In this document: one piece after another, positions 354 to 50,647 of the stretch
Layout of the letters: each line of letters opens with the position of its first letter
Numbering within the stretch: position 1 is the first letter of the stretch
Source of the DNA: Agelas oroides
Lineage: Eukaryota > Porifera > Demospongiae > Agelasida > Agelasidae
Direction: 5' to 3'
Assembly: GCA_949130485.1 (NCBI GenBank)
Contig: OX422197.1
Span: 8,222,212-8,286,211, forward strand
Length of the DNA stretch: 64,000 bases
The notes under the pieces: generated by a model
Seen by the model: only the letters and a program-made list of their open reading frames with translations
Database searches by the model: none
What the model was told of the DNA's origin: nothing
Program-made: the position numbers and the translations under genes

Positions 354-3300
354 CTTGTATCCATCCTTCAGTTCAGAGAACGGCACACTGCTGCTTCCCA
401 TCCACTGCCCAGTGGTCTCTGGTGCCTCACAGTCCAGGCACGAGCATCCCGGTTTGCCGCAGTATACCTGGACGGCGTCGCTGGAGCTGCCCAGGTTGGG
501 GTCAATCCAGTAATAACCTGGAGGGAGTGACAAGTGTGCGAAGAACTCAAATTCTGAAGAAGGAGGCTTCCACAAGCACAGGTCCCAGGTTCTAGCTACA
601 CTAGCAGCAGGTTTCTTTGCCTTTCAAGGTGCACTCAGCCTCACCTCAAACATCACGAACATTGACTTTCAATGGGAGATTAAGCCCTTAATAAATATCT
701 CCTTGAGCGTCATGTTGCCGTGTGTTACGATATACATCTTGGACTTTCATGGTATGGTTGGCAAATTTTATTTTTGCAACGTATACCGTGAAAGTCCAAG
801 ACCCATCATTAATATTACTATTACATGCGCGTCGGGGTAAAAGGGTTAAGTGTTCTTAATATTCAATAAAAGTCACTCACTCTCGAGCAATCCGTGGGCA
901 AACTACGGTACGTAATGTCGACCGTGCGTATATTTTTGTAATATCCAATGTCGCCCAGCGCCTCTACATGCTGAATTGCTGCCCACAACTCCCAGCAATC
1001 GCCATAGGACAATTTACTATTGGGATATTGTTGTTAACTGGTTTTATACTTAGTCTACATTGTGCCTTCCCACAAGTCAAGAACAAATTATGACATAAAT
1101 GCAATTTTTTCATCGGTAAGATTTCCCTAGCCTCGTTCCCAGGCCTCCCCCATTTTTTGTTCTTCGGTTTGTGTTCAGTATAATACACGGAAACGGAAGA
1201 GCAGCGAAAAACGAGGAAGGCCTGGGAACACCTATCACGTGAGTGACGTCTGGTGGATGCCAGGTGGACTTTGGGGGGGAGGGGTACACGTTCAACTAAC
1301 GCACTGGACTTCATCATCGAGTGCTCCAACGTTAGCCAGGACCCCAGATGTTCACAAGATCAACAGTACTTGACTTCACCGGTTAGAAACTTGCTCTATG
1401 GCTTATTGCACATGAGTTTGTAGATGGCCACCGCCCCCCCCCCCCCCCCCCCCCCCCCCACGTCCGTCATTCACGTGATAGGTGTTCCCCAGGCCTTCTC
1501 TGTTTTTTGCTGCTCTTCTGGTTCCATGTATTATACTGAACGCAAACCGTGGGGAGGCCTGGGAACGAGGCTAAGATTTCCCCATGCAGCCTCGTTCCCA
1601 GGTTAGAGATAAAATCTGGGAGAGACCTGGGAACGAGGCTAAGATTTCCCCATGCAGCCTCGTTCCCAGGTTAGAGATAAAATCTGGGAGAGACCTGGGA
1701 ACGAGACTATAAGGTTGTTCCCTAAATGAAAACATTTTCGTACGCACCCTCAGTGAATGATGGCTGGCAGAGGAAGAGATCGTAGCAGCTTCTAGCTGGG
1801 GCCATTTGGCTCCCGTTTGGTTTCAGCATGGTATCCAACTCGACACGAATCTCATCAATTTCGTTGAAGATGGTAAATATGCCCTCCTGGAATAGCTTGT
1901 CACCCTGCTTCTGGCTGGCGTAGAATCCCTTGAGATCCACGGGTGGCTGTATGCAGAGAGCGGAAGACAGCATGCAGACATGGGGTTCAAGTCAACAGTT
2001 CTAGAACAAATCCATGATGCGTTTTGTAACGTAATTGTGCAGTGTACAATGAGATAGACTTCTTTTTCACTGGTGAACATTTTATTTCGGGTTTAATATC
2101 AGATTTGACTACTAAGTCAAACTTTCGGAAGGTCCAAATAAAGTTGGGAGATATGTAACTTACAGATGATCCGCCGAGTGGGACGGTGGTCTGAAGAGGG
2201 AAGGAAGAAATTCCGGATAAACAGTCAACTGAAGCAGCTGCAAAAACAAGATGTTTAACTCACTGATTGTCCGGCTGGACCAGGTTCTCCTTTGGCTCCC
2301 TAAAGAGGGAGGGAGGGAGGGAGGGAGGGTGGGAGGGTGGGAGGGAGGGGTGGGAGGGTGGGTGGGAGGGTGGGAGGGTGGGTGGGAGGGTGGGAGGGAG
2401 GGTGGGAGGGAGGGTGGGAGGGTGGGAGGGTGGGAGGGAGGGTGGGAGGGTGGGAGGGTGGGAGGGAGGGTGGGAGGGTGGGAGGGAGGGTGGGAGGGTG
2501 GGAGGGAGGGAGGGAGGGAGGGAGGGAGGGTGGGAGGAGGGAGGGTGGGAGGGAGGGAGGGAGGGAGGGAGGGAGGGGGGGGGGGGGGGAGAGTTTGTAA
2601 AATGGTCATAATATTTATGTTGTATCTATGATGTTGAGTTGGTGAAATGTGACTCACAGGTGGCCCAGATGTCCCCTGGTCTCCCTTCTCTCCCTGAAGA
2701 AAAAAAGAGAGATATAATATGATCAACACTCCATCGCCATCATAGTGAAGCTTCAACTTACTGGTGGTCCCTGTAGGCCAGGAGGTCCAATCGGTCCATT
2801 TTCCCCAGCTGCTCCGGTAATACCTTGTTGCCCCTGTCAAGATACGATGGAGTGCGAGGTAAATACAAGATATTGACAGTGAAGCACAAAGAGAATTGCT
2901 AAGCATAAAGTCACGATTGAGGGAAAGTTCTTTGAGTATGGTGTCTGTAGGTTGCATGAGAGTTAATTGATGCCTATTGTCTCTCAGGAGCTTATTCACG
3001 GCGCTCATAAGCTCCTGGCCTCTGAATGTGTGAGGTTATGCTAGAGAGCTATTGGGAACTACGTAGATAAGGCGCTGCCACATAACTCTAAAATCACACA
3101 AGTCCCTTATTCAAACTTCAATTATCCAAACACCCCTGTGTTACCCGAATCCTTCAGCTCAGTCTCATGCATAATGTAAGCAATAATAACGCGACCTGGT
3201 CCCAGCTAGTTTGGATCACCAAGGTGCACCAACAAAATAGATGAAAGTATACAAGAGACACAGAGAGGTTACATGTAGTTGCTAGGGATACGGAACATAG

Positions 3301-3832
3301 ACATACTCTTTGTCCCTTTGGTCCAGCAGGGCCAGGAGGTCCAGAGTGGCCAATGGCACCCGCCTCGCCAGGGTCTCCCCTTTCTCCTTGGAGACCTTTG
3401 TTTCCCCTCGTACCTTGCTCTCCTTTCTGGCCCTCCACACCCTGTGATCCCGGCAGTCCAGGTGCTCCCTGTGGAGTGGGAGGAATGTATTCACCCACAG
3501 AACAGACATAAAAACAACAAACAATTAAACAAGTTTTTGATCAATTACATGCGTCGAGAGTGCATGTGATCTAGAACAGAAAATAGACCACCATTTCTCC
3601 AATACCGTAATACCCTCTCCCCTTCCCTCACTCCCTCCCTCCATTATTCCTCTCTCCCTCTCTCCACCATCCTTCTCTCTTTCCCTCCACCCTCCTTTCT
3701 CCCTCCCTCCCTCCACCCTTCCCTTCAAACAAAAGTGTTTTTGTCACTGCACAAAGGTAGCCATGCACTCACGGGTGGTCCTGCTTCTCCATTAGGCCCA
3801 TCCCTACCAGAGGGACCCACTTCACCCTGCAC

Positions 3833-3866
<34 letters not shown>

Positions 3867-6800
3867 GTGATTCCTCGGGTGGAAGGACTTACAGTAGCTC
3901 CAGTAGATCCTGGAGGTCCGGTCGGACCAGGTGGGCCAGTCTCACCCTGAGGAGAGAAGGAGAAAAAAAAATGTACTTCTTGCCCTCACACGGCCCTCAC
4001 ACCCGGGGGCCCTCACACCCGGAGGCCCTCACACCTATTGGATACTCATGCAACTATGAAGCTAGCACATTTAGCATGCAATTTCTTCTCCACAGGCATA
4101 CATGATGACTAAATACCATAACAGATTATACATAATTATGTGGGAAGGGGTATTCCCCTGATTGTCATGCAAAGGGGTAAGTCCCTGTTATTATACAGGA
4201 GGCGTATGTCTGACCTGCAATCCTGGAGGACCAGACTGTCCTCTAAGACCAGTCTGCCCTTGGGATCCCTGCAAGAAAAAGGTAGAGAAAGATCAAGTCA
4301 CATGACATTGACTAGCATGCAGTCTGGCCCATTCCCAACCTCTCCCCTGGGGAAAAATGAGGTATGGGAATGAGATTAGACACAAACTGACCTTTTCTCC
4401 TCGTGATCCTTTAGGTCCAAGCTCACCACTTGGTCCAGGAGGTCCCTAAGAAATTCAAGAGCCACAAACTCAATTTTGGGCGTTATATTCAACAAAAGAT
4501 GATTACACTCAACACAATGACGGAGGTGTGTTCCCAGCTGGCCTAGCACTTACAGCGGGCCCAGGATCTCCTGGGGCTCCGATGGGTCCTGGTGGGCCCG
4601 CCAGTCCCTGTGCCCCCGCTGAGCCCGGGGTCCCGTCTTCCCCATCAGCTCCATCGTCTCCCTATGAGGTAGGTCATATATTTCAACTTCAAGGATCGTT
4701 GTAGCAAAACAGATCCTTCCAACAGTTCACTGCTTGTAGTTTAAAAACTGGTTCATATGAAGGAGGAGCCTGGTAACAAGGCTAAGAGATGATTACAGGC
4801 TGAGAACGAGTGTCTGTAGAGACTCACAGGGGGTCCAGGAGGTCCCTGGGGGCCGGTAGCTCCAGGTGCCCCAATTTGACCCTGCGGGGAAAATTCAATA
4901 CTGTAACTTATAACTGTTGTGGACTTGGTCAATAGCACACGTTGCATCATAATAGTGGCAGACATACGGGAGGTCCAGGCTCTCCTGGAAGGCCGGCTGC
5001 ACCAGGGTCACCAGGTGCCCCCTGTGTAAGGAGGAAAGGAGGGAGGGAGGGAGGGACATGGTTTCACTCAGTGGTTTAGACATTATCAATGCACAATTAA
5101 TGGCTTCTCGGCAGTTTTGACAACCAGCCAACTGTCACACTCACTGGAGGGCCAGGTTGTCCTACAGGTCCAGATGTGCCTGCCTCACCGTCCACTCCCT
5201 TCTGTCCTGGTAGACCAGTGATGCCAGATGGGCCTGGTGGACCTTCATTTCCCTTCGGTCCTACAAAACCTTCCGCCCCGGGTGGACCAGGAGGACCAGA
5301 TGGACCCTACAAGTGGTATGTATGTGCATGTCACATGACATTTGTACGCACTATATAAATGTACATGACTAGCTATCTAATTATACAAGTAGAATTTTTT
5401 TTTTAAATGAAAACAAGCGTATGTGACTAGAGGAATGGAATCCATAAAAAGTAACCACGCGCTTCGCTAGGGCCATCGGTGCACATCTTCACTAGGGCCA
5501 TCAGTGTACATCTTCGCTAGGGCCATTGGTGTACATCTTCCTAGGGCCATTGGTGTACATCTTCGCTATGGCCATCGGTGCACATCTTCGCTAGGGCCAT
5601 CAGTGCACATCTTCGCTAGGGCCATTGGTGTACATCTTCGCTAGGGCCATCGGTGTACATCTTCGCTAGGGCCATTGGTGTACATCTTCGCTAGGGCCAT
5701 CGGTGTACATCTTCGCTAGGGCCATCGGTGTACATCTTCGCTATGGCCATCGGTGTACATCTTTGCTAGGGCCATGCAATGCTTCACTACTGAGCGAGCC
5801 CCACACTAGCGGGACTGCATTGCAAGACGCGTGTGTATGTTGGTTTGTTTGTTTGCGGCCATATACCGTGAATTTTAAATGCGCATAAATATTTCCCGAA
5901 AATTGAACGTCCACGTGCAGGTATCCTCAATAGGTGATGGGCAATGCTGGCTACTTCCAGAGTGCAGCGTCGGCAACCGTAGCGGAGACGCCTCAAGTTG
6001 AAGCACGTACGCCACCCTACATCTTGTTTGTCACGGCAGCAACGGACAGACCATCAATGGCAGGCTGCTCGCAGAGCGTACAACTGAATTGTACACGCCG
6101 GTTTGTGACCATTTCAAGTAAGGCCCATGCATAAACGGCACTCATAAACGCCAGTGATTCAGCTCATGATTTCAGCATGAAGCTTAGTCTATTCATGTGT
6201 AGCCATAGTAGCTGCTTGCTCAGGCTCGCCCCCACAATGTTCTACATTTTCTAGTTATCTACCTTAGGTTGACTGCATGCTATTGCACAGTCCTGAGGCC
6301 AATGTTTAGCCAGGTTTTTGTACACACGTTATGTGAGCATCTTGGAGTGAAGTTTCGTCTTACATTAGGCAGGAAATGATACTACAAGGCTGCACCATAT
6401 TAAGTGGGCTTACAATATCTCCCGGACTTCCCCGTGGGCCTTGCAGGCCAGACCCTCCAGTTGGACCCTGTGTATAGAAATAATTGCACCTTAATTCATC
6501 ATCTTCATACTTTACAGACAGTTTCCATGGTGATTCTTACCGTCAGACCCCTGTCTCCTGTGTCACCTTTCTCTCCTCTCTCACCAGGAGGACCCTGAGG
6601 AAGAAATGGAGCTGACACAGCTAGACCACACTTTTAACTAGAGGCTGGATGGCCACCATGCACTACGTACCGAGGGTCCTGACAAGCCGTTCTGTCCAGC
6701 AAAACCTCGAGTTCCACGCTGACCCTACAGAAACAATGTTTAAGATATGCTCACTTTGTACCCGTTCTCTTTCACACCATCGATCCTCTTCTCAGTGTAG

Positions 6801-9800
6801 TTAAGGCCTGGGTCAGGTTATTTCACATGTATTTGTGTTTTCATCAGTACTTCAATATGGTTCATACACACTTCAGTGTTTCTATATAATGACTTGTTAA
6901 TATTATGAAACTGAAAGATTTACCCTTTCACCCACGCATTTAATTAGGTTATATCTGTCACGTGACGAAGATGGGTGGGACTGCCATCACCAGCAAAAAC
7001 AAACACAGAGGCTGATAGGCGGAAAGTATGCCGGGTAGCTAACCATTTCATAACTAACTTAAACCTCACCGGGAAGATTGCGCGAATTCAGATGCTCTAA
7101 CCAAGCAAACAGGCCCTCAAGAGATGGACAGTTGGGGCATCCTTTTGGTCACAGCAACTCTTACGAACAATATTTCCACAATCTACGCGGTAGGCAAACT
7201 CCTTGATGCCTACTCATTAGAATGCAGTCGTTAAGGTAAAGAAGTACCAAGCTATATAATTTCCGCCTCGTTCAACTTTTTCATTCGCTACACTCTATGC
7301 TGCCATCTCTCTGGAAGTCACGCGGATATGTAGCCACGCCCTACCTTTTTCACGTGGTACATACGAACGTTTACCCGCAAAACACCCGCAACACACGTAC
7401 AGCTGTCTTGGGCATCTAGTAATCATGTCATCGAACGTCAGCCTTCATCAGTCTACCGCTACAGCCAGTCCTTCTCAACAGTCAAACGTAAACAAATCAC
7501 AGTGCCGCGTGTAGAACTAACCGCAATCACATGACAGATCGTGCCATGTGCAATCGTTTCCATGGATACGTATGGCGCGCATGGCATTTCGCCGACCCAG
7601 GCCTTAACTACGCTGAGTTTTTGGATGGCTTACAGTAAACCATCATAAACTGGACAGTGGTGAGGTCTGGAGACGAAGCTACTTTCATTGCTGATTACAC
7701 CTACCTTTGTACCTCTGTCTCCCTTTGACCCCGCTGTACCTGGGTTACCTCTTGGTCCCTGCATATCATGAGAACCATTCTGGCTGTTACCATAGTAACA
7801 ATAAGTGATAGACATTACTATTGGGTCAATGTAATTGTTGACTATATGCTGTGCACCTGGTAGTGTTGTTACCATAGTAACTATAATTATTGGTGATAGA
7901 CTATATTGCATACTGTGGCAATCCAGAATTGCAAATTGCAGTTGGCCCATGCATCGTAGGGCTCTTGTGTAAGGTGTAGGGTTAGTGTTGCTGGTCAGGT
8001 CTTGCTACCTACAGTAAACTAACCACTCAATTTAAGATGCCGCACGTAACTGAACCTATGAATATTTCACATGCTACATTTGTCAAGTCAACCCAATCCA
8101 GTGCTACCACAGAACAAACATGACACCACTAATCATATTCTTGAGGACCAATGAACGGAATGTTGCCTAGGGGTGCCACACAGAGCTAGCTAAATTCAAG
8201 TATTAGTATGCATGAGGGGAGAGATTGCCCGACTTCCAGCTGGAATTATACATGCCTTTAATGAGATTCATTGATCTCAATTGGGACATTAACAACATTC
8301 ACAAGTATCCGAGGAGGGTTAATGAGATTCATAGCCCTGTTCTGTTCGGGTTTGAGTCCATGAAAGGGTTAGGGCATACTCATAAATATTCATCACCATT
8401 TACCCAACCCCAAGCCAAGCTGCCAATGTTTCAACAGAAGGTCAATAATGAAGTTCATGAGAGTCAACATACTCTAACCCTCCCATTGGATAGCTGACTG
8501 AACCCAGGGTTGTTCATGGGTAATGCTGAGGTCTAGTTAAAGCCAACTCATTACATGGACAGAAACACTCCAGATTTTAGAGCTCTGTCGGGCTTTAATT
8601 AGATTCATAGGCTCAATTAGGGTTAGGGATTTTAGGGTTAAGGCAAACCAGGGTTAGGGCTAGGGCTAGACTTAGGGTTTAATGCTCTAATTATATGAAT
8701 CTGAGTAATATTGAATTTGCAAGCATGTATGTGGTTCTCAGTTACCGATGTTCCGTCTGCACCAGGAGCACCTGGTGGTCCTCTTTCACCAGCTGAGCCC
8801 TGTGGAAGCAAAAAGTGTACTTATACACATGCAGGATTGGGGAAGGGGGGGGGGGGGGGGGGATAGGGGGAAGGGAAGGGAGGGAGAGAAGAAGGAAGGG
8901 GAGGGAAGGGTGGGAAAGGGAAGGAGGGAGGGAAGGGAGAGGAAGGGAAGGAGGGAAGAGGGAAGAGAGAGGAGGAAGGGAGGGATCCGGAGGGGGAGAG
9001 GAAGGAAGGAGGAGAGAGGAAGAGGGGGGAGAGGGGAGACTCACCGGCTCTCCTCTTGGTCCCTCTGGACCCTGAGTCCCAGAATCACCATCACTACCCT
9101 GCAACAGAGAGAGATCAACAAAGATGGGTAAGTCTCTTTCAGTTAATTGACACAAACATGCAATTCTCAGTAGAAAATATCATTCCTGACCTTTGGACCT
9201 TCAGATCCTTGACTACCTGGCTCACCAGGAGCTCCAGGTGCACCCTGCAATTAATGAGTTAATTAACACATTGTTCAGATGGTGAAGTTTCGTCAATGTT
9301 GTGTAATGGGCTAGCTACCGGTCCTACAACTCACAGGGGTCCCAGGCTGTCCATCCTCACCAGGGTCACCTCTCTCACCACGCTCACCAGCATCACCAGG
9401 CTGTCCCGAGCTCCCCGGCTGACCTGCCTGACCAGGATTTCCCTACAAGGTAGCCACACACACAAAAACAAGTGAATATCACAGGTATACATACAGCTGC
9501 CAGAATATGTGCCTGTGTCTATAGAATACCCTCATCCCTAGCCTCGTTCCCAGGCCCCACCCAGCTTTCTGTCGCTTGCAGTACGGAAAAGCCGTGGAGA
9601 GCCTGGTATCTTTTCTCACGTGAGCATGACATAATCGGAAAATGGCGAAATTTTGCAGAACAGGCTGCGTTTCGCGTATTTTAAACCGACTACACCCTCA
9701 ACGCTTGGTGTGTAAGACAGTCGCCTCCCGCTAGCTAGATACGTGAGGTAAGTTACCTGGTACCTTGGCTCTTTTCGCTGTTCTGGGCCCGGTGCGCCCA

Positions 9801-12800
9801 CGCACAATGAAACCCTTTCTACCATCCTTTCTATCCTGACGTCACTCACGTGAGAAAAGATACCAGGCCCTCTCCCGCTTTACCGTACTAATAAGCGACG
9901 GAAAGCTGGGCGGGGCCTGGGAACGAGGCTACTCATCCCCATATTCGGTGAAAATATAACCCCAAAAACACTCAAAAATATCAATTCCCTCTTTGAGAAC
10001 CGGTACCACTGATGAAGAACCACCCACAGGCATATATTTTCATTTTCAGGAGAAGTTTCGAAAGAAAGTTTATCGCCCATGGGTGTTTATTTTACGGTAT
10101 TGAGCATGATCATTTAATTTATGGTTAAATGGAAATTGTCATTGGCCATAGCTTACTGGGTTGCCAGGGGGACCCGTTGGCCCAGTCAGACCGGGAGGTC
10201 CAGCCAGACCAGGGTTGCCATTGGTTCCTGCCTGTCCAGCAGGTCCCTGCAGCCCAGGCTCTCCCGATGGTCCCTTTGGACCGGTCTCTCCTCTCTGTCC
10301 TTGTTCTCCCTGTGGGCCAGTGGGTCCAGGCGGACCAGAAGGGCCTGGTGGGCCAGATTCTCCGTCTCTACCATCAGCACCAGATGTACCAACTTCTCCG
10401 CGAGCACCCTAGAAAATGGAGGCAAAGCATGTGTGTGTGAGTGTGTGTGGTGTGTGTATGTGTGTGTGTGTGGTGTATGCATGTGTGCGTGAGTGTGTGT
10501 GTGTGGTGGGTGCATGTGCGTGTGTGTGTGTGGTGCATGCATGTGTGTGTGAGTGTGTGTGTGAGTGTGTGTGTGTGTGGTGGGTGCATGTGCGTGTGTG
10601 TATGCGTGCGTGCGTGTGTGTGCAAACACGCACATTCACAACAACCAACACAACACAACTGCCCAAGTTTTCAATCTCCAGTTGGCAAGAGAAAACTTGT
10701 TTCATAACTGCCAGGGCTGGAGTCGGCCAGAACCCTGCCAGAAAACTTATGAACACCATAAAAAGCCTGCCAACAAATGCAATTTATAGTGCGCAAACAA
10801 GCTAGCTATAGACGGACATGAATTCTTGACTACCAGCATTAAACAGTACTTGTGGCCATCAAACGGGGAGGTTATCCTGCAATAACGACTTTATTACTTC
10901 CAGAGTTGATTTAATACACATGTACTGTTGCAATGTGCGTACCGGTAGTCCTGGTTCCCCAGGGTCTCCAGATGAGCCTCGAGTACCAGCTTCACCCTGA
11001 GATGAGAAATAGCACCACGTAGCCATGTAATTACACACATACTGCAGCTCGACACATACTGTATTCTCTGAATGACTTAAGGTTACGATGAACAAGCTGT
11101 GTGCGCGCTTATTTATAATTATATTCATGACGTATACCGCAAGTCCGAATGCATTCCTACCGTTACTAACTTTGCGTCAATTTTAGCGAACTACTTTTAT
11201 TTTCTGTGGAAGATAACAGCTCAACGGCCATCCGTACTAAATTTTTTCGGTCGACTCGTCAAGTTTTGCCAAAAAAGTTCTGGACAAACTGTCAGAAAAT
11301 GGCTTTTTCGGTCGTGGTTTACGAAGAATGCTACTCAAAATTTTATGTAGCGCCTACATTTCGAGCGCTGCTTGAAAATTGCCATCGACTCGACCTAGAT
11401 ACTTGTGCTAGGAGACTAGTAACCGAAAACGGTGAGTTTGAGGGCCGTCAGTAGGCAGATATTTGACGCAAGAGAGTTTATGTGAAGGCTTTGTTCTGGA
11501 TGGTGTGGATTATAAGCTGCTAGAGCTGTTATGACCAAAAGAGCATTGTGTATAGCCTGGTCTTCGGTATCTCCATAGGCTTTTGAAGCGCTAAAGTACC
11601 TCCAAGCACTCTAGAGTTATAACCCTGACATTCAAGCGCATTTATTGAATTCTGAGATAGGACAGGTTGTTCATAGTTAGTTAGAAAGTTGTAAAATGAT
11701 GTTTCCTATAAACTATATTGTTTACAGTGTAAACTATCTGTATGTATACTAATAACAAGAAGGACCAAGCAGGTAGGAAAATGTCCCACTTATTGCATGG
11801 TACGGCATATATATATTGCCTAGGGATTTTGCAATTAGTTTACAGTAACCAACCCTCGTCCTCGGGCTCAGCCCTTGAAGTTCAGTACTAGTGGTTACTG
11901 ACATAAACCTCAGACTTTGTACCATGCAATATCTATTACATCGTGTTAATTTGACAATGAAGTCGTTCCAACAGTTTACATTATGTTCGTAGCACCATAG
12001 AAGAAACTCAGTACGTACCTTCTCTCCTCTCACTCCCGGAGGACCAGGGGTTCCATCTGTGCCAGGCAGCCCCTGAGAGAGACAAAGCCATCAACACTTG
12101 TACATGCATGAAAACAGCACTTCAGTGGTACAGCATAACAAACGTACAGGATCCCCTGGGGCTCCCGGGAAGCCCGGTGCGCCATCCCTACCAGCTGCAC
12201 CCTGCACACAAAACAGAAGCAACAATATGTCATGCGTGTGAGTGCATTGTGAAGGAGGGGCTAAGGGGTAGTGCACTGGTTAACAAAATTTGGGAGCATA
12301 CAGATTCTCCAGAAGGTCCAGGTGGGCCTCTTCCTCCGGGCTCCCCTACAAATCCCTGGAAGGGTGGGGGGGGCAGAACAGAGGTAAGAACAATTCATGA
12401 AATACGCACAGCTCAGCAGCTTGAAGCTCACTCACAGGATCTCCATTTGATCCAGGTGGACCCTCTGCACCTCTGGCGCCCTGCACAACAGAAGGAGAGT
12501 ATGAGTTGCCATGCATTTCTCAAGTGTGCTAGCAAGAGGAGCTCCTACCTTTTGACCAGTTCTACCGGGAGCACCTGGCAGACCTCTTGTTCCTTGTGGG
12601 CCCTGTGTTGGTGTTGTTATTGTTAATGTTGTTGTTATTGTTAATGTTGTTTGTTATTATTAATGTTGTTTGTTGTTGTTAATGTTGTTTGTTGTTGTTA
12701 ATGTTGTTTGTTGTTGTTAATGTTCATTAGTTGTTGTTAATGTTGTTTGTTGTTGTTAATGTTGTTTGTTGTTGTCAATGTTGTTTGTTGTTGTTAATGT

Positions 12801-15800
12801 TCATTAGTTGTTGTTAATGTTGTTTGTTGTTGTTAATGTTGTTTGTTATTATTGGAGATATTAATTTTGACCTCCAACTGCTTGAGAACGTACAATACGT
12901 ACCTTAGGGCCATTCACTCCTGCCTCGCCAGGGAAGCCTTGTCTTCCAGATTTTCCCTTTGGCCCTGATGGGCCTCTCTTTCCTGATACACCTGGGCTAC
13001 CTTTTGCTCCAGGGGGGCCAGGGTAGCCAGCGAAACCTCGGGCACCTTGTGGGCCCTAGCATGGTGAGATGAGAAGTAAAATGGTCGATTGCTACAAGCA
13101 CAAAATGATAGATCAGCCTTACTCTCTCTCCAGGCAGTCCAGGTGAGCCAGGGTTGCCAGGTGAACCAGGTGGACCCTGTGATCAACGCAAGATGGACAG
13201 TTGATGCAGCTGATATAGCTGATAGATATTCATCTCGTAGTATTATTAGAGTGACACAATTGAGAGAGAATCAGTGAGTAACACAGGATCACAGTGGGTA
13301 ACAGGATCACAGTGGGTAACACAGGATCACAGTGAGTAACACAGGATCACCGTGAGTAACACAGGATCACAGTAACATAGGATCACAGTGAGTAACACAG
13401 GATCACCGTGAGTAACACAGGATCACAGTAACATAGGATCACAGTGAGTAACACAGGATCACAGTGAATAACACAGGATCACAGTGAGTAACACAGGATC
13501 ACAGTTAGTAATACAAGATCACAGTGGGTAACACAGGATCACAGCGAGTAACACAAGATCGCAGCGAGTAATACAGGATCACAGTGAGTAACCCAGGATC
13601 ACAGTGAGTAACACAGGATCACAGTGGGTAACACAGGATCACAGTGAGTAACACAGGATCGCAGCGAGTAATACAGGATCACAGTGAGTAACCCAGGATC
13701 ACAGTGAGTAACACAGGATCACAGTGGGTAACACAGGATCACAGTAATACAAGATCACAATGAGTAACACAGGATCACAGTGGGTAACACAGGATCACCG
13801 TGAGTAACACAGGATCACAGTAACATAGGATCACAGTGAGTAACACAGGATCACAGTGGGTAACAGGATCACAGTGAGTAACACAGGATCACAGTGGGTA
13901 ACAGGATCACAGTGAGTAACACAGGATCACAGTGGGTAACACAGGATCACAGTTAGTAATACAAGATCACAGTGGGTAACACAGGATCACAGTAATACAA
14001 GATCACAGTGAGTAACACAGGATCACAGTGGGTAACACAGGATCACAGTGGGTAACACAGGATCACAGTGGGTAACACAGGATCACAGTGGGTAACACAG
14101 GATCACAGTGAATAACACAGGATCACAGTGGGTAACACAGGATCACAGTTAGTAATACAAGATCACTGTAATAATCAATCAAGGTTACCTGAGGTCCATC
14201 GTCACCATCTTTTCCATGAAGACCAGGAGCACCAGAAACACCCTGCACACAGTCAGGAAGGACAGTGAAACTGCATATAGCTAGGTGGCTAAGTGATCAA
14301 GGGAAGCTTACAATAGGTCCTTGGTCTCCAGGAGGGCCTCGAGCGCCAGCCAAACCATCGAAACCCTGACCGACAGATAATATGAGGTATTGCAGATAAA
14401 CATTGACCACGCAAGACTCCATATGTACTAAACCCCTGGGCGCAATGAACATATATGCACATTGTGTGAAACTTACCCTTTCTCCTTTGGAGCCGGGTGG
14501 GCCAGGTGGGCCAATGTCACCCTGCAATTATTGAGGAAGATATTGTATCATGGCACAATCAAGGAGGAGGTGAGAGGGGTGTGAGGGAGGGGGGTGAGGG
14601 AGGGGGGTACGTACGAGAGAGATGAGGAAGTAGGAGGTGAGAAAACAGATGTGGGGTGAAGCGAGGAGTGCATGCAATCACTTACTACTTCTCCATTTGC
14701 ACCAGGAGGGCCTGAGTGTCCTGGCGGACCAGGTGTACCCTATGTGTAGTGGCCATGTGTTGATCAATTGGTACATGCACAGCTACCATTAATGTCTGAT
14801 GAGTATACTTACCGCTGTGCCTTTTTCACCATGTGGACCCTCAGGACCAGGGTGACCCTGAGTTGAGAAAGGGTTAATTAATGTACTCCGTTACCATGGT
14901 AACCACAGTGTTGCTAGGTGACTCACAGGTGGGCCCCCGGGGCCAGGTGGACCAACATCCCCATTCTGTCCAGCCACGCCGTCGCTGCCTGGTGGTCCCT
15001 GAGATCCCGGCACACCATCTCGACCCTTTGAAGAAAACAAAAAACACGTGGGCATAAAATCATGAGACTAGAGAGATGGTCTGGGCATGAGACCAGAGCC
15101 ACATACGTCATGAGTTATCAATGTGGACCATATATTACTTTTCGGTGTAGTGAATATGTACTATCATCTGATTGGTTGAAGCTTTGCTGACTAAATCAGA
15201 AGTTGCTTACAGGTGATCCAGAGGTGCCCCGTTGTCCTGGAAACCCACGTGGTCCCGGTGGACCCTAGCGGAAAGATGCGAGAGGAAAACCGTTGTAACT
15301 CCACAGTACAGTGCATCACACTTGGTGTACACTTACCCTTGATCCCTTTCCACCTGGCTCTCCTGTCTCCCCGGTTGGTCCCTGAGAGGTGGGAACACAG
15401 AGGATACAGCTAGCCGGTTCACAAATGGTTCATTTTCCTGCACTCATGGGCAATTTATTAATAGCACACTCACGGGTGGTCCAGGGGGACCAATTTCTCC
15501 AGGGGGGCCTTGAATACCTTGTGAACCCTATCAAATCAACATATAAAAATGTTACGTATGGATAAATAGTGGTATAAATAAATAGTGGTGCAATAAATAG
15601 TGGTATGAATAATTAGTGGCATTAATAAACAGTAGCATAAATAAATGGTGGTATGATTTAGGGCATAATAAATAGTGGTGTAGCGAATAGTTGTATGGAT
15701 AAATAGTGGTATGAATAAATAGTGGCATGAATGAATAGTGGTATGAATGAATAATGTGGATATTGGTATGTGGTTATCCCACTCACAATATTTCCAGAGG

Positions 15801-18800
15801 GTCCAGTTGGACCGGGGTCTCCAGGATGACCGGAGTCTCCATCTTCTCCATTGACTCCAGGCGTACCAGGTGGACCAGTTGTGCCCTGTGTGTGTGTGTG
15901 TGCGTGGGCATGCATGTGTGTGTGTGTGTATTGTACATGTGTGAGGGAGAGGAGAAAGCAGAACAATTTCATTCTCCATCCATAAAATGCTTATAATTTG
16001 AAGACTCACGGGAGGTCCTTTGGATCCTTGTGGACCCTTCGGCCCTAGCAGCCCTTTATTGCCCTACAAGACAAGTTGTTGTCATTTTTCCATCCATTCC
16101 TGTAACACACAAGCTATGTCTGTTTAAACCCACCTTCTCTCCAGGGAGTCCTCGTGGGCCGGGGTGCCCAGGAGCACCTGGTGGTCCCTGCAAAACAGAG
16201 CAACTCAATAAAGCTCCAACCTGAGATGAAAAGATGATTATCAGCACACCTTCTCCCCGTCTCTTCCTCTAGGTCCCGGAGGGCCAGACGCACCAACTGA
16301 ACCCTGGATTTACGAGCATCAAGGAGGAGGATTGGAACAGTGGTAAGGAGGGAAGAAATTGAAACAAGCTCTAAGTAAGGGAGGAGATGCATCCATTACT
16401 CACTGGTGGTCCTCTGTCGCCAGGGGCTCCTTGAGTACCGTCATGCCCGGGGGGACCCTGCAGAGCAGTAAAAAGATTAGCAAGTAAGTGTAGTTGAGGT
16501 GAGGTCCAGCTACATGCAGTTGCCAAATCTTGGTTCTTACCGTTGTTCCTCTTCTGCCTTGCGGACCAGGAGGACCTCTAGGTCCTTGCTCACCCTGCGT
16601 GAAGAAGTAGAATGAAGTTCCTTATAATTATTTATATTAATTATATCTCATTCCACCAATAATACATGTACGTATACCAGAATACCGGAAGTCGAGAAGA
16701 AAAATCGTTCTGATTAGTAGCGTATATACGGGGCGAGCCTGAGCGAGCCCCACACTAGCGTGACTTCATTGCGCACATGCGTGTGTATGTTTGCTTGCTT
16801 GCGTGCTTGGACCGACCCCTTACCGAAAATTTTAAATGAGTGCATTCAAATATTTCACGAAGTCGATATCGTGAAGCATGTGAAGGCCAGTGCAGGGCTA
16901 CTGTCAGAGTGCAGCGTCGGGGACCCTGAGCGAAGACAACTGAAGTTGAAGCACGCGTGGCACTGGTTTGTGCTTCTACCGACGACGACAGGCCGCTCAC
17001 AGACGGTACACACATAATATGGCGGTGGCCGGTTGACTGGGTCGCCTGCTTCAGGTAGCGGGCCCTGATGCATAAACGGCACTCATAAACGCCAGAAATT
17101 TAGCTCACGATTTCGGTGTAAAGCTTAGTCCATGCATGTGTAGCCACGTTAGTTCCCCTGGCTGGAGAAATGGTTGGCATATGTGATACTCATATTTATC
17201 TCTGGTGAGGACTTATGCATTGTCAAATTTGGCTTAAACAGTCGACAGTGACAAATCCTGCTGTGTGCCATGACAAGGTAGTAAATCAGCAGTTTGTTGC
17301 TTGCTCAGGCTCGCCCCATGATGATGAATCATCTCACTAGTTTATATAAAGTTGGGACTTGTTTGAGTGTCCTGGTTAATGAGGTGTCCTTAATTTAGGG
17401 GTACTGTCTTTAGGGCCCATAGCGCCAAAAGGGTTTTTGGGCCCTAAAGGGTTAAGAGGGGTACAATCCACCCATGTACTCTCAGACACATGCAACAATT
17501 CTGTCTAGTTCACTCACAGGGGTACAGCTTGCAGTCGGTCCTTTGCCATAGTCTGATGGCGTTCCACCATCTCCGTCTTGTTGAACCTGCAATGACGCAA
17601 GTGAATGTAACAGTCATGTGAACACGTGCTCTGAACTTCCCCCCCAAAAAATTATATAGTGAGTGTTCTTAATTTAGAGAGAAAACAAATCCTAATTAGT
17701 AAGGTTTCTTTAATTTAGAGAGAAAAAATTTGATTAGTGAGGAGTCTTTAATTTAGAAAGGACAAAATTCTGATTAGTGAGGAGTCTTTAATTTAGAAAG
17801 GAAAAATTCTGATTAGTGAGGAGTCTTTAATTTAGAAAGGACAAAATTCTGATTAGTGAGGAGTCTTTAATTTAGAAAGGACAAAATTCTGATTAGTGAG
17901 GAGTCTTTAATTTAGAAAGGAAAAAATTCTGATTAGTGAGGAATCTTTAATTTAGAAAGGAAAAATTCTGATTAGTGAGGAGTCTTTAATTTAGAAAGGA
18001 CAAAATTCTGATTAGTGAGGACTCTTTAATTTAGAAAGGAAAAAATTCTGATTAGTGAGGAGTCTGCAGTGTCCTAATAAGAAAGTACTAGTCTCCAAAT
18101 TAAGTCATGAATGCATGTGCTCCAGTGTGCTGCATCCTGTACGCACTCAAATCACATAGCAGAACTTACAATAAAAGCCTGTCCAGGTGGTCCTGGGGGG
18201 CCTCTGCCACCAGGTTGTCCAGAGTAACCAGGATCACCCTGCACCAATCAAAACATGGCTTACATAGACCATGCATGCAGCAGCATAAAATGGGAAAGAA
18301 AAAAAAAACAAGCTTGCACTAAACTGACCCTAGGTCCCTTCCTCCCAGCTAAACCAGGCACGCCAGGAGGTCCACGTGAACCCTGTGTTCCAGTAAAAAT
18401 AAAAAGAAAATGTGGAGTTAAACATGTACAAAAAAGTGGATATTCTGTACATACATCACTCCATCTGGCTGGTTAACGTTTTTTGCAGTTAATTTCAAGA
18501 GGCCAATTAAGTAAATTAATTGCAGGAAATTCCCCCTAGGATAAACAAAGGAGGTACTGGATTGTACACTAACAGAGTGAAAAGAGGACAAAAGTGGGGT
18601 AACCAGACATCACAAATAATCATTTGCCAGAAAAAAGGGCGGGGCAAGAACTAGTCTATCAAGCCAGACCATCTCTCACCCTCCAGAAAAGTGAGAGAGG
18701 GTCTAGCAGCTGTTATTAGTATGCATGAGATGCTGACCAATCAGATCCTACTGTTCCATTTTGAACCAGTAGCAACACCTTGGCTTCAGTATGTAAGACT

Positions 18801-23092: not shown

Positions 23093-26000
23093 GGGAATAA
23101 GTACAGCTGCTACTGTAGTCCTTGTAATGCAGGTTTTTCTGCTTCACACACATGTACTGGCAACAGAAACAGGTAGGAAATTATGAAGTAATGAATGTCA
23201 GTAACAAATGAATTTCAAGAGTATATTTGGTTTTCAGACAAGCTCCGCCCCCCAGAGGGGCTGAAGACTTGGCTACTGCAGGCTCAGAACAGAGTTGAAG
23301 TAATAACTTCATGGAAAGATGTGCCGGGAGCAAAGGTCAGTGACTCTATAGATTTCAAACTGAGCTATATATAGAGCCATAATTCTTCATCTTGTGCTTG
23401 ACGACATGTGGCACAGGTACCGTGTAACTTATTGTCTAACAACAATGTAATGAATTTTTGTTGTTTGAATTACAGCATGCCCATGGAAACTGCAAGCTCT
23501 TCAGACTATTAGTGGTTATGCAGTCAAAGGAGTGTTATGTATAGCACCACCATAAGCCTGTCTGCACAGCACATGAGGCCTCTGTGCTCAGTCTAAAGTA
23601 TAGCTGCTGTATCCCGGCCAGGGTTTTATTTAAAAGAGTCAAACAGTCTATAACAAGGTTACAATAATGTGATTGCTTACAATTTTAATGATATTCATTG
23701 CATCATGTGCCAAATTAAGGTGGGTGTGGCTGCTACCCATTGGCATACTAGTTAGTAATATACCTGTGCGTTTGTAGGTGAAGAAACCAACTTTGATAAT
23801 TGCTGTGAGCTTCAAGTTTAATAGAAATTACAAGGTTTGAATTTCACCTGAACTAATTCTGACATTGCACAACTTCTACTACTTTCCCTGAAACATTTTT
23901 TTCTGATGGAACCCTGATATTCAGAAAATCTAAATGGCCATTATATGATTTGTCTCCTTACAAACTTTATCTCATCACCCCTCAGGAATACTTAGTATTC
24001 TACACTCTATCAGGAGTTGTGTACACGAGAAGATCGCAAAATGTCACACAAACTATTCATATCAGTCTACAGAACACTACTGAAATAGTGGTTCAAGTGG
24101 CTGCAGTTGGCAGTGGAGGGAAACTGGGTAGGAAGAGCGCAGTTCTGCAGGTAGAGACAACCATTCCATTTCAAGGGTTCTTTCCAGCAATGGGGATAGA
24201 GTCTACTGTTTTAGACTTGCGTGCCACTGCTGTCAGCCAGACATCCATTAGCATACTCTGGAGGCCCCCAACACAATGCAGTGGAATACAGGTACAAAGA
24301 TCAAAACTTGTCATGTCAGACACAATGATTCGTTCTTTTTTAATTTTTTGCCTTTAGAGATACAGCATGTTGGTTTATGAGAAAGGCCAAGGATTTACTG
24401 GTTCTGGGGCTGTCTCACAAGACACACTAGGATATAACTTCACTGCCCTTCTTCCTGGAACAACCTACTACATTTTCCTGCATGCTGTGTTCAGGAGAGG
24501 AACGGGTCCTGCCACACAGATTGCTGTTACTACCCTCCCACAAAATTTAGAAAGCCTATCTTCAGGTAAGGTATACTGGACATGTGTATTGGACCTAGCT
24601 GGCAGTTTCTCTATGTGCAGTTCTTGGATTCCAGGCTGTTCACTATTTTGTGAGATGCTTTATCTGCCAGTGAGCACTGAGAAAGCCATTATTTGGGAAA
24701 CAGCTATGTGTAAAACATGCTTTATGTAACTTGTTCTGTCTTGTGATTTACTGCTTATCTGGTGTTTTTAGCCTGGCAGCTATACTAATTTATACTCATA
24801 TCACAGTTGTATAATAATTTATTTTCTCTGTATCATCATCCATACACAGTGCTCCAAAGCAAGAGAGCAAAACTTTCAATTTTGGAAACTTTTAGCTGTA
24901 ATGCTTGACACACACATCAAATGTGTTTACAAAGTACATAAAAGGAATGACTCAACACTTGTTGTAGTTATTATCAAACAGTTGACTGTGGTAGGATATA
25001 GGCTATATACAATAAATATTGCAGACAATAGTTCTTGCATGCTTCATGATACTATAGAGCTGAAGGCCGCACCTCAGAACTTTCGAGTCACCGTGATCAA
25101 AGGGAATCTGGTGTCCTTCTCCTGGAACCGTGTTTCCAATGCCACTGTGAGTGAGGAGAGACATTATAGATGATATTTGTATAGCTAAGAGTAAGGAATG
25201 TTACTCTGCGTGAGTGAGGAGAGACATTATAGATGATATTTGTATAGCTAAGAGTAAGGAATGTTACTCTGCGTGAGTGAGGAGAGACATTATAGATGAT
25301 ATTTGTATAGCTAAGAGTAAGGAATGTTACTCTGCGTGAGTGAGGAGAGACATTATAGATGATATTTGTATAGCTAAGAGTAAGGAATGTTACTCTGCGT
25401 GAGTGAGGAGAGACATTATAGATGATATTTGTATAGCTAAGAGTAAGGAATGTTACTCTGCGTGAGTGAGGAGAGACATTATAGATGATATTTGTATAGC
25501 TAAGAGTAAGGAATGTTACTCTGCGTGAGTGAGGAGAGACATTATAGATGATATTTGTATAGCTAAGAGTAAGGAATGTTACTCTGCGTGAGTGAGGAGA
25601 GACATTATAGATGATATTTGTATAGCTAAGAGTAAGGAATGTTACTCTGCGTGAGTGAGGAGAGACATTATAGATGATATTTGTATAGCTAAGAGTAAGG
25701 AATGTTACTCTGCGTGAGTGAGGAGAGACATTATAGATGATATTTGTATAGCTAAGAGTAAGGAATGTTACTCTGCGTGAGTGAGGAGAGACATTATAGA
25801 TGATATTTGTATAGCTAAGAGTAAGGAATGTTACTCTGCGTGAGTGAGGAGAGACATTATAGATGATATTTGTATAGCTAAGAGTAAGGAATGTTACTCT
25901 GTGTGAGTGAGGAGAGACATTATAGATGATATTTGTATAGCTAAGAGTAAGGAATGTTACTCTGCGTGAGTGAGGAGAGACATTATAGATGATATTTGTA

Positions 26001-29000
26001 TAGCTAAGAGTAAGGAATGTTACTCTGCGTGAGTGAGGAGAGACATTATAGATGATATTTGTATAGCTAAGAGTAAGGAATGTTACTCTGCGTGAGTGAG
26101 GAGAGACATTATAGATGATATTTGTATAGCTAAGAATAAGGAATGTTACTCTGCGTGAGTGAGGAGAGACATTATAGATGATATTTGTATAGCTAAGAGT
26201 AAGGAATGTTACTCTGCGTGAGTGAGGAGAGACATTATAGATGATATTTGTATAGCTAAGAGTAAGGAATGTTACTCTGCGTGAGTGAGGAGAGACATTA
26301 TAGATGATATTTGTATAGCTAAGAGTAAGGAATGTTACTCTGCGTGAGTGAGGAGAGACATTATAGATGATATTTGTATAGCTAAGAGTAAGGAATGTTA
26401 CTCTGCGTGAGTGAGGAGAGACATTATAGATGATATTTGTATAGCTAAGAGTAAGGAATGTTACTCTGCGTGAGTGAGGAGAGACATTATAGATGATATT
26501 TGTATAGCTAAGAGTAAGGAATGTTACTCTGTGTGAGTGAGGAGAGACATTATAGATGATATTTGTATAGCTAAGAGTAAGGAATGTTACTCTGCGTGAG
26601 TGAGGAGAGACATTATAGATGATATTTGTATAGCTAAGAGTAAGGAATGTTACTCTGCGTGAGTGAGGAGAGACATTATAGATGATATTTGTATAGCTAA
26701 GAGTAAGGAATGTTACTCTGCGTGAGTGAGGAGAGACATTATAGATGATATTTGTATAGCTAAGAGTAAGGAATGTTACTCTGCGTGAGTGAGGAGAGAC
26801 ATTATAGATGATATTTGTATAGCTAAGAGTAAGGAATGTTACTCTGCGTGAGTGAGGAGAGACATTATAGATGATATTTGTATAGCTAAGAGTAAGGAAT
26901 GTTACTCTGCGTGAGTGAGGAGAGCATGGAGGAACTTTTATAGTAGCAAAGACCATATTTGTATGGCTAAGAATAAGGGAGAGATGCTATTTCCAATGCC
27001 ACTGTGAGTGAGGAGAACATGGATTTTATTATATTAGCATATTTGCATGGCTAAGGATGAGGAGGAGTTAGGGTGAAATGCTGTTTAAGAAGCCCAACTT
27101 CCATACCATGTCTTAGAGGTTGGCTACAAAATGTGATATCTTTTGCACATCCAGGAATAGGTGTCAGTTAAGCAAGTAAGCTTTATTGAGACCTGGTGGG
27201 GAGGATTAGCCGAATGATGCTGCTTTCAAGGCAAAGCACTGGGTAGCTACACTAAGCTATATAATAGTGTAGTTGAATGGCCATAAGTATCAATGGTCAC
27301 ACCACAATTTACACCTATATCCAAGACAGCATGATTGAATGGCCATTGAATGTCTTGTACATTGATTCCCTAGCAATACGTCATGCTACTGTCATCTGGC
27401 CAAGGACTAGTGACTTTTGCAAACACTTCAGCATCAAGTATCACGACCAAGCTCAACCGCCAAATGGAAAGAACTGCCATTTTCTTTGTGTTTGCAGTGA
27501 ATAACGCTGGAAGATCTCGACTTAGTCTGTTCCGCTCTATCCCTCTCCAAGATATGAGCATTCCCTCACAACCAACAGACTTGCAAGTGCTCAACACTTC
27601 TGGGAGTTCTGTCAGCCTCATTTGGAGACATCCTCTGGGGGAAGTCAGAATCAATGTAAGCACCATACACTGCTCAAATTCATTGTTAAAAAATTGGGGT
27701 ACAAAGTGATCTAGTGATGATTTAATTGTTATAGCAATTTGGCAGCCATCACTATGGCAACAGTTTTTACTTTCTGGTGTAAGCTTTTGAGAGAGAAAGA
27801 AAAAGTACGCAGAAAAATCTGGGATCCAGCCGAGCATCGAAGCCAGAACCTTCTGAATACTAGATATGCTCTTACCACTGAGTCACCAGACCCACAGCAT
27901 ATGAGCAGAAGCAAGTCTGAATATAGCAAGACAGGCTAGAAAACTTTGTTCACAGGGGATTCTCTACGTGTGATACATAGGCATGATTAAAAAATGGCTT
28001 GAGCCTTGCCCCTCAATATTGAAACACATGGATTAATGAGAACAGGGACAATGGCTACCAAGCCTTTTTGTTTGTTTGTTTGTTTGTTTGTTTTGTTGGG
28101 GGGGGGGGGGGGGGGGGGGGGTTGCACATACTGTTGCTTCTTATAGTGCTCACAAAAATATCTAATATGGTGCATTGTTTGTTTGTTTAGCTGTACAGGC
28201 ATCCTAACATGTCCATGTTGTTTGTTTGTTTGTTTAGCTGTACAGGCATCCTAACATGTCCATGTTGTTCACTTGACAAGACCTACAGGTGCACTGCAGT
28301 GAAAATGCAGAGAAGAGGAGAGAACGAATCGGTGATTGAAGCAAACACTTTTGCCACTGTTTGCACCCTGGAAGGACTAAAGCCAGGCAGTGAGTACCTC
28401 CTCTCAGTGAGAGCCATCAACTCTGTGTCTGCTAGCGCTGCTGCTCAAGTGACCCTGCTCATGCCTGGAGGAGGTCAGTGCTGCATGTAGTTTAGCAGTA
28501 TTGTAGCTAGGCTTCAGACCTTTGTCTTCAAAGTAAAAGTTCAGCAATATCATTCTATTAACCACATCTCCCTAAAAAAAGGCGGGGCTAGGTGTTACAC
28601 AGAGTCACACTGTGCAGTACATGTTATGGCCAATACCAGGCCTCATCAGCTGCACTGGCGGTGACCAATAGGAGGAGACTATGTATCACTAAGTAAAACT
28701 GAGAGTGTTAAACTTGTGGATGTTATTTTCTGATTCAGGGAACAATATTTTGCCAGCACCAGTACTGATGGCTACAGTGACTAAGAAGGGAACTGTTCGG
28801 TTTTCATGGAATAGAGTTACTGGAGCAGTGGTACGTATCAGCTAATACTAAAAACTAAAATGCATTTAGTAAGACCTGTTTTGTTTTGGTGATTAAAACT
28901 AAAACTAAAACTAATGCTATTTTAGTCCATTACACCTAAACTGAAACCACCCAATAATGAGCACTGATACTAGCCATTTTTAATTAAAACTAAAACTAAA

Positions 29001-35000: not shown

Positions 35001-35325
35001 CTGTTAATGTAACGATTGTCTGCCAACCAACCCACGCAGTTGTGAAGTGTCTGCGAAGTTGAGAACAATGTGCATTATTGGCAGCTACTATTCATACATT
35101 TGGCTATAGACAAATGACAGGTAGTAGCTGTCTGCATGTTTGTATGGGTGGATACTTGCTCACCACAATATTGTAACTGGGTCATGGTTACTGCAGACAA
35201 CATAGACTGTGTGATAACAAAGGAAGTATTGATACTTTGATTTTTTCTGGCTTCTTTATTCTACAGTTGTCACCAAGCACCGACTTGTGAGTAACATATT
35301 ATGTTGTCTGTGTTGTAATTTGTAA
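23093..35325 (+). CDS. Secreted-type protein with five fibronectin type III domains
   Basis: Exons: 23093-23172, 23238-23335, 23986-24291, 24358-24565, 25025-25146, 27374-27655, 28281-28473, 28739-28830, 34352-34523, 35267 to about 35325. All joins keep phase. The first exon encodes a hydrophobic leader (ATVVLVMQVFLLHTHVLA), consistent with a signal peptide. An upstream start exon probably exists but I could not place it; the first in-frame Met is at 23127. Five FN3 domains follow, each with a B-strand Trp (VITSWKD, SILWRPP, SFSWNRV, SLIWRHP, RFSWNRV) and a late strand of the V-x-A-V/I-x-x-x-G kind. No catalytic domain or membrane segment is visible, so an extracellular adhesion or matrix role is inferred. 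The C-terminus is uncertain: exon 35267 either stops at TAA 35323-35325 (ending CCLCCNL) or splices on at GTGAGT 35287. An ATTAAA at 35569-35574 could be the polyadenylation signal. Divergent from collagen gene 1. I do not recognise an orthologue. Confidence 0.8.
25147..26924. repeat. 63-bp minisatellite, 28 full units, each starting with the exon's 5' splice site
   Basis: The unit begins GTGAGTGAGGAGAGACATTA, and the array starts exactly at the donor of FN3 exon 25025-25146. The distance 25147-26910 equals 28 x 63, plus a partial 29th unit. Copies are almost identical (C/T at the CGTGAG step, rare others). Because 63 is divisible by 3 and one antisense frame has no stop, a 619-codon minus-strand open frame results, which I do not regard as a gene. 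Confidence 0.95.
26985..27016 (+). repeat. Duplicated FN3 exon end with splice donor
   Basis: TTTCCAATGCCACTGTGAGT from the end of exon 25025-25146 recurs here, about 60 bp beyond the 63-bp array. It marks a duplication that flanked or generated the array. Preceded by CTA, so it is not a complete exon. Confidence 0.8.
27821..27891 (-). repeat. tRNA-like / SINE fragment
   Basis: On the minus strand TGACTCAGTGGTAAGAGCA (box A-like) is followed about 30 bases later by GGCTTCGATGC (degenerate box B). The arms do not form a clean cloverleaf. Probably a tRNA-derived SINE piece. Confidence 0.45.
28558..28675. repeat. Dispersed repeat (CCAATACCAGGCCTCATCAG), copy 1
   Basis: Shares AACCACATCTCCCTAAAAAA and CCAATACCAGGCCTCATCAG, followed by a GGTGACC end, with copies at 46831-46910 and 48501-48610. 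Non-coding and of unknown class. Confidence 0.7.
29118..33704. repeat. 41-bp minisatellite, about 112 copies
   Basis: Unit ATCATCAGTTATAGACCAAC plus TAGGTATACTGTGTTTCCAAT repeated over 4.6 kb within the 5.5-kb FN3 intron 28831-34351. Variation is nearly confined to two sites (GTTATAG/GTCATAG and CCAATAT/CCAGTAT), and variant runs recur in blocks, suggesting segmental amplification. No spacers and no coding potential. Confidence 0.97.
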
Positions 35326-35737
35326 TGGTCATACAGGGCTTCCTTGCACTAAAGGTAGCCTAAGCAACCGGATAACTGTGAAGCCAACCTTTATACACAC
35401 CCTAGATTAATTGCATCTGGCTTCACCAGTGGTAGACATATTAGATCTAATAATAGGCTTGGTTTTTGTCTGTAGGTAACACAAGGCTCCTTGTAGGCTG
35501 GCTATTGTCTATGAGAGAAAGGGCCAGGAAGTGTGGTGGTTTATCTTGATAGGGTTCATTAGGGTACCATTAAACTTCCAGTATACCAGCTCTAGTGCTA
35601 TCAGTTTCTCTCTGTGCATGTACCTAAGTTAGGCCACCCAACTGGCATTGACTAGGTATATTGTAGAAAGCCAGAGAGCTGTAGTTATCGCTTTGTGTTT
35701 GTTGGCTGGGCACTGAAGCACACTTGGAGAAGCCGCC
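35326..35737 (+). promoter_or_regulatory. Spacer and upstream region of collagen gene 2
   Basis: This 412-bp stretch lies between the possible end of the FN3 gene and the gene 2 ATG. It holds a possible polyadenylation signal ATTAAA (35569-35574) and the 5' UTR leading into gccgccATGG. I see no TATA box or other clear promoter motif. Confidence 0.35.

Positions 35738-50647
<14,910 letters not shown>

What the first reader, a model, noticed from the sequence alone, without database searches (positions are those of the whole stretch)
354..50647. Complementary C-propeptide cysteines in genes 1 and 2 predict a heterotrimer
Sequence: at the C1/C2 segment gene 1 reads SCYDLFLC and gene 2 reads SCLDLFIQ; at the C3 site gene 1 reads DPNLGSSSD and gene 2 reads DPNGGCTSD. 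Gene 1 therefore has C2 but not C3, and gene 2 has C3 but not C2. Established: in COLFI trimers C2-C3 bonds are interchain, and vertebrate chains that cannot homotrimerise lack one of them (pro-alpha2(I) lacks C2). Inference: neither chain can make C2-C3 bonds alone, but together they can, so the two chains probably co-assemble.
Basis: partly seen in the sequence, partly recalled or inferred. Interest (0 to 1): 0.82.

Follow-up and report, generated by a model that had tools for sequence, protein, structure and literature searches.

The report
Half-cysteine collagen chains, probably sponge
Two neighbouring collagen genes of what is probably a sponge each keep a different one of the two cysteines that tie collagen chains together, which hints that they build mixed molecules but cannot on their own close a fully bonded three-chain bundle.

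Summary
Gene 1 (minus strand) keeps C2 and lacks C3; gene 2 (plus) keeps C3 and lacks C2; both sites align without gaps to human procollagen I/III C-propeptides.

The inference is half right. In the known geometry C2 of one chain bonds C3 of the next, so a trimer of genes 1 and 2 alone has at most one of three bridges. Two bridges need a third chain with both cysteines. Human analogues: [a1(XI)]2a2(V) (one bridge, modelled) and type V a1a2a3.

The pair is not unique. The genome, probably a demosponge, has at least seven fibrillar genes; of six readable at both sites two are C2-only, two C3-only, two have neither, none both. Four of 15 pairs are complementary; absence of a both-chain has probability 0.4 under independence (little power). 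Gene 1 also lost C6 and C7 and gained cysteines; a cleaner C2-only partner for gene 2 is gene 5, on another contig. Gene 3, the obvious third chain, could not be read at C1-C4.

New member of a known kind; moderate interest.

The parts
1..20 (-). gene 1, start of C-propeptide exon 3 (continues left of the window; exon 4 with the stop codon also lies outside)
   Evidence: exon 3 begins at C15:8222231 after an acag acceptor
354..517 (-). gene 1, C-propeptide exon 2: [19 protein letters not shown]..., C3 site = Ser, C4 present, extra cysteines in GCSCLDC
1748..1946 (-). gene 1, C-propeptide exon 1: stalk plus [12 protein letters not shown]1 and C2 present
2264..18391 (-). gene 1, Gly-X-Y exons (crude count 343 triplets in 45 exons)
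36825..48021 (+). gene 2, Gly-X-Y exons (crude count 329 triplets in 34 exons; at least the last exons missed)
48980..49190 (+). gene 2, C-propeptide exon 1: [12 protein letters not shown]1 present, C2 site = Gln
49470..49642 (+). gene 2, C-propeptide exon 2: [19 protein letters not shown]...RTC, C3, C4, C5 present
49915..50082 (+). gene 2, C-propeptide exon 3: C6 (TYHC) and C7 (YDGC)
50501..50647 (+). gene 2, C-propeptide exon 4: [12 protein letters not shown] stop, C8
54005..63882 (+). gene 3, first Gly-X-Y exons of a third fibrillar gene; its C6-C8 exons lie beyond the window (C15:8296292-8296798), its C1-C4 exons could not be read

Best explanation
Genes 1 and 2 encode two fibrillar procollagen chains of what is probably a demosponge, each of which lacks one half of the inter-chain C2-C3 bridge. 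Most likely each is an obligate-hetero chain: its C-propeptide first associates non-covalently through the Ca2+ loop (inferred), and the surviving cysteine then forms one bridge to a neighbour that carries the other half (inferred). Genes 1 and 2 can be such neighbours, but two chain types of this sort give only one bridge per trimer, so a fully linked molecule needs a third chain carrying both cysteines; gene 3 is the obvious candidate and is unread at these sites. Shown: residues, gene structure, cysteine inventory, bridge counting. Inferred: that the bridge geometry of human C-propeptides holds here, that the chains meet in one cell, and that the lone cysteines are kept because they are used.
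For: Residues and alignment to human chains. C1, C4 and C5 are kept in 6 of 6 readable chains (C5 of gene 1 with an uncertain placing), C2 and C3 in 2 of 6 each. Genes 2 and 5 have exactly seven C-propeptide cysteines, lacking only C2 and only C3 respectively, so one cysteine of each has no canonical partner in a homotrimer. The DPNxGxxxD loop is kept in 6 of 6. Single-bridge analogue [a1(XI)]2a2(V), where a1(XI) lacks C2 and a2(V) lacks C3; the single bridge there is from an AlphaFold3 model (PMC12562938 section 13). Human C-propeptides lacking C2 or C3 run as monomers alone, and a C2-less a1(III) variant was rescued into a linked trimer by the wild type with both (PMC6181919 section 11). Genes 1 and 2 are split from the rest in the helix tree (support 92) and weakly in the C-propeptide tree (71-72), which would fit reciprocal loss after duplication.
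Against: The pattern is no stronger than chance. Gene 1 has lost C6 and C7 and has four cysteines beyond the canonical set, so its C2 may pair elsewhere. Genes 6 and 7 have neither C2 nor C3 and keep the other canonical cysteines where read, so in this animal trimers can probably form without the bridge. No expression, protein or relative-species data could be had here, and no structure was predicted.
Confidence: 0.45

Rival explanations
1. C2 and C3 are dispensable in these chains. Trimers (homo or mixed) form by the Ca2+-dependent interface and coiled stalk alone; the single-cysteine states are steps of neutral loss and say nothing about partners.
For: 2 of 6 readable chains lack both; independence gives P = 0.4 for no chain with both; the Ca2+ loop is kept in 6 of 6; C2/C3 are absent in some invertebrate chains and C2 was reported not to be needed for association and folding in semi-intact cells (PMC2852846 passages; that test was later criticised for lack of Ca2+, PMC6181919 passages); the pro-alpha2(I) C-propeptide trimerises transiently with Ca2+.
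Against: An unpaired cysteine in a secreted domain is usually costly (general knowledge), yet 4 of 6 chains keep exactly one; genes 2 and 5 keep every other canonical cysteine.
Confidence: 0.35
2. Other cysteines do the linking. Gene 1 (extra cysteines next to C5, in exon 3 and at the C-terminus), gene 4 (stalk cysteines and extra ones before C8) and gene 7 (CQGC in the stalk) use new inter- or intra-chain bonds, so the C2/C3 count is not the right test.
For: 9 C-propeptide cysteines in gene 1, 11 in gene 4 with its stalk, two stalk cysteines in gene 7.
Against: Genes 2 and 5 have no extra cysteines in the stretch modelled; placement of the extra ones in a trimer is unknown.
Confidence: 0.15
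3. Gene 1 + gene 2 + gene 3 form a 1:1:1 heterotrimer with two bridges and fixed chain order (gene 1 C2 to gene 3 C3, gene 3 C2 to gene 2 C3), as in human type V a1a2a3. This is a special case of the best explanation.
For: Genes 1 and 2 are the C2-only and C3-only chains the code asks for; gene 3 lies next to gene 2 and keeps C6, C7, C8.
Against: Gene 3's C1-C4 exons could not be read; 0 of 6 readable chains have both cysteines.
Confidence: 0.15

Closest known systems
Human mixed V/XI collagen [a1(XI)]2a2(V)
   Same: One chain lacks C2, the other lacks C3; a single C2-C3 bridge is possible (PMC12562938 section 13; the bridge from an AlphaFold3 model, the molecule as reported in work cited there).
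   Different: Human gene 1 counterpart a2(V) is not described as losing C6/C7 or gaining cysteines (from recall); co-assembly is reported there, here only inferred.
[quoted passage not shown] 2018, PMC6181919)
   Same: A C2-only and a C3-only chain are two of the three parts (section 10).
   Different: The required both-cysteine chain was not found among six readable chains; gene 3 unread.
Sponge fibrillar collagens (seven chains described in sponges; PMC2852846 passages)
   Same: Number of chains; loss of C2/C3 in some invertebrate chains is noted there, as is the incomplete chain-selection sequence of the sponge and sea anemone chains.
   Different: The primary paper (Exposito 2008) was not held, so its chains could not be compared one by one.

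Membership tests
Fibrillar procollagen (COLFI) chain | COLFI C-propeptide over the Pfam cut-off | tested here: met
   both genes
Fibrillar procollagen (COLFI) chain | long Gly-X-Y helix of about 338 triplets | tested here: met
   343 and 329 triplets, mostly in 45/54/99/108/162-bp exons, with a crude exon finder (some exons missed, some perhaps of the minor helix)
Obligate-heterotrimer chain by the C2/C3 cysteine code | exactly one of C2, C3 missing | tested here: met
Obligate-heterotrimer chain by the C2/C3 cysteine code | no disulfide-linked homotrimer when expressed alone | not testable with these tools
   needs protein expression
Closed disulfide-linked heterotrimer of genes 1 and 2 only | at least two inter-chain C2-C3 bridges possible | tested here: not met
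   at most 1 in 4 of 4 compositions
1:1:1 heterotrimer code | third chain with both C2 and C3 | tested here: inconclusive
   0 of 6 readable chains; gene 3 unread at these sites

The most novel reading that the evidence does not exclude
Genes 1, 2 and 3 of one cluster are the C2-only, C3-only and both-cysteine chains of a 1:1:1 heterotrimer with a fixed chain order, so that a cysteine pattern dated to chordates in print arose earlier, or arose separately in sponges, by reciprocal loss in sister genes.
Probability: 0.13. Interest if true: 0.7.

Novelty: new member of a known kind. Interest (0 to 1): 0.36.

Why it matters
How invertebrates choose collagen partners without the vertebrate chain-recognition sequence is left open in PMC2852846 (passages), and the one-chain-lacks-a-cysteine pattern was described as emerging with chordates (PMC6181919 section 6). 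If half-cysteine chains of a sponge really pair, the pattern is older or recurrent. The genome offers a direct test: two C2-only and two C3-only chains, and one unread neighbour that decides between one and two bridges.

Tried and rejected
Considered and dropped: (1) a frame or splice error at the C2/C3 sites: borders are GT-AG and phases fit. My first join of gene 1 exons 3 and 4 was out of frame because I used a wrong donor; the donor GAGGAG|GTTGGT keeps the frame, and the protein corrected by hand went into. The gene 1 queries lacked exon 4. Gene 2 was first joined from a wrong start (right), gene 7 likewise (corrected by hand). (2) A second C3 exon in either gene: the searches gave one place per gene. 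(3) Most COLFI matches as further collagens: 34 of 43 lie outside the six genes that match, 33 of them in open frames of 239-441 aa and one of 126 aa; I looked at 3 of these 34 and scanned 1; those 3 showed no Gly-X-Y. (4) VWC in the N-propeptides: 3 genome matches, none in the cluster. (5) A tight bidirectional promoter: genes 1 and 2 are divergent, but about 18 kb separate their first Gly-X-Y exons. (6) Grouping of chains by cysteine state: genes 1 and 5 (C2-only) and genes 2 and 4 (C3-only) do not group, though supports are uneven and helix alignments of repeats are rough; the gene 3 tail was left out, gene 3 was used only in part and gene 7 not at all. (7) Structure prediction was not run: the tool takes proteins read straight from the DNA, and these are joined from exons. 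(8) The phage collection search gave no match and is uninformative. (9) Papers: I saw listings only for the searches, apart from the papers named in the report; the primary 2008 paper was not held.

Full report
What is there. The window is part of contig C15 of a 259-Mb genome in 141 contigs. The source is probably a demosponge: its mitochondrial contig (22,436 bases, 19,000 fetched) carries 22 tRNA genes as ARAGORN reads them, a subunit-c ATP synthase gene and a cox1 in two pieces with in-frame TGA. That such a set marks demosponges, and that cnidarian mitochondria keep one or two tRNAs, is recalled, not from a call. Four fibrillar collagen genes lie in about 112 kb: gene 1 (minus) and genes 2, 3 and 4 (plus). 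Further chains are gene 5 and gene 6 on C1 and gene 7 on C9. Seven chains is the number described for sponges in PMC2852846 (passages).

The observation. The exons have GT-AG borders, and both genes pass the Pfam COLFI cut-off. Against human COL3A1 and COL1A1 C-propeptides of the PDB, the stretch C1-C4 aligns without gaps: gene 2 has Gln at C2 and Cys at C3, gene 1 has Cys at C2 and Ser at C3.

The rest of the C-propeptides. Against the human columns C1 to C8: gene 1 C C S C C S L C, with four further cysteines; gene 2 C Q C C C C C C; gene 4 C R C C C H C C, with five further ones; gene 5 C C S C C C C C; gene 6 C E S C C C, then unread; gene 7 C E N C C C C, with two stalk cysteines, its C8 exon seen but not put in the alignment; gene 3 only C6, C7, C8 readable. 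The placing of C5 in gene 1 and of C7 in gene 4 is uncertain. PDB searches bear out the C1-C4 placing for genes 4, 5, 6 and 7; genes 5 and 7 need a one-residue gap between C2 and C3. So among six readable chains two are C2-only (1, 5), two C3-only (2, 4), two have neither (6, 7) and none has both. The cleanest half chains, with seven cysteines and no other canonical cysteine changed, are genes 2 and 5, not genes 2 and 1.

Is it more than chance? With 2 of 6 chains carrying C2 and 2 of 6 carrying C3, no overlap has probability 0.4 under independence, and 4 of 15 chain pairs are complementary. The complementarity by itself is therefore weak evidence; with six chains the test also has little power.

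What the bridges allow. In human homotrimers C2 of each chain bonds C3 of the next (PMC6181919 section 10). Enumerating compositions of the six readable chains gives at most 0 bridges for 36 and 1 bridge for 20 of 56; the two mixed compositions of genes 1 and 2 give one each, their two homotrimers none. Two bridges need a chain with both cysteines; one hypothetical such chain gives two bridges with each of the four complementary pairs. This one-bridge situation is described for human [a1(XI)]2a2(V), the bridge from an AlphaFold3 model (PMC12562938 section 13), and the two-bridge one for type V (PMC6181919 section 10; PMC12562938 passages).

Mechanism. Non-covalent, Ca2+-dependent trimerisation comes first and disulfides then lock it (PMC6181919 passages). 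The loop DPNxGxxxD is kept in all six readable chains; that its two Asp and the Asn bind Ca2+ is recalled. I think it most likely that genes 1 and 2 make mixed molecules in which each surviving cysteine finds a partner in another chain, with a third chain needed for full locking. The main rival is that the bridge is dispensable in this animal, as genes 6 and 7 suggest.

Relationships. In a rough helix tree genes 1 and 2 are split from the rest with support 92 and genes 3 and 4 group with 95; in the C-propeptide tree genes 1 and 2 are split from the rest at 72, and at 71 with the C2 and C3 columns masked. The trees are unrooted, use a general protein model and rest on hard alignments. If they hold, the C2-only and C3-only states arose more than once, and genes 1 and 2 are nearest relatives that lost opposite halves.

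Known or new. That C2 and C3 are absent in some invertebrate chains is in print (PMC2852846 passages). I found no paper that describes a complementary pair in a sponge in the listings; the key 2008 paper is not held. What I saw of papers: PMC6181919 sections 6, 10, 11 and passages; PMC12562938 section 13 and passages; PMC2852846, PMC5353611 and PMC5120351 passages; the rest as search listings.

Noticed in passing
G000 contigs C8, C10, C13, C16, C18, C20, C21, C22, C27 (loci L006-L008): 34 of the 43 COLFI matches (a lower bound) lie outside the collagen genes, 33 of them in open frames of 239-441 aa. The three looked at have a hydrophobic start, a coiled-coil-like stretch and a COLFI-like SC(K/R)EIKE...SGYYW...YC unit with no Gly-X-Y: a sizeable non-collagen family with a COLFI-like domain.
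   Followed up: partly
L022 (C1:31880170-31880675) and C1:27321910-27321990: Copies of the last C-propeptide exon of gene 5 (94% DNA identity over 506 bases; 78% protein identity over 27 residues); no copies of its other C-propeptide exons rang.
   Followed up: partly
L035 (mitochondrial contig C141, 13976-16550): cox1 is split between two matches about 1.2 kb apart; a 397-aa open frame (C141:14584-15774, code 4) overlaps the end of the first and fills most of the gap, as for an intron-encoded protein.
   Followed up: no
L033 (C107:16176-16808): A third COX1 match without TGA codons on a small contig, perhaps bacterial or otherwise not the mitochondrion of this animal.
   Followed up: no
window 25100-26986 (-): 629-aa open frame between genes 1 and 2 that matches DUF6690 (76 bits, 12 stretches) and several unrelated families, probably a repetitive array rather than a gene.
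   Followed up: no
L017 (C1:31888163-31889047): The intron between the C1/C2 exon and the C3 exon of gene 5 is almost wholly a tandem repeat with offsets in steps of about 20 bases.
   Followed up: no
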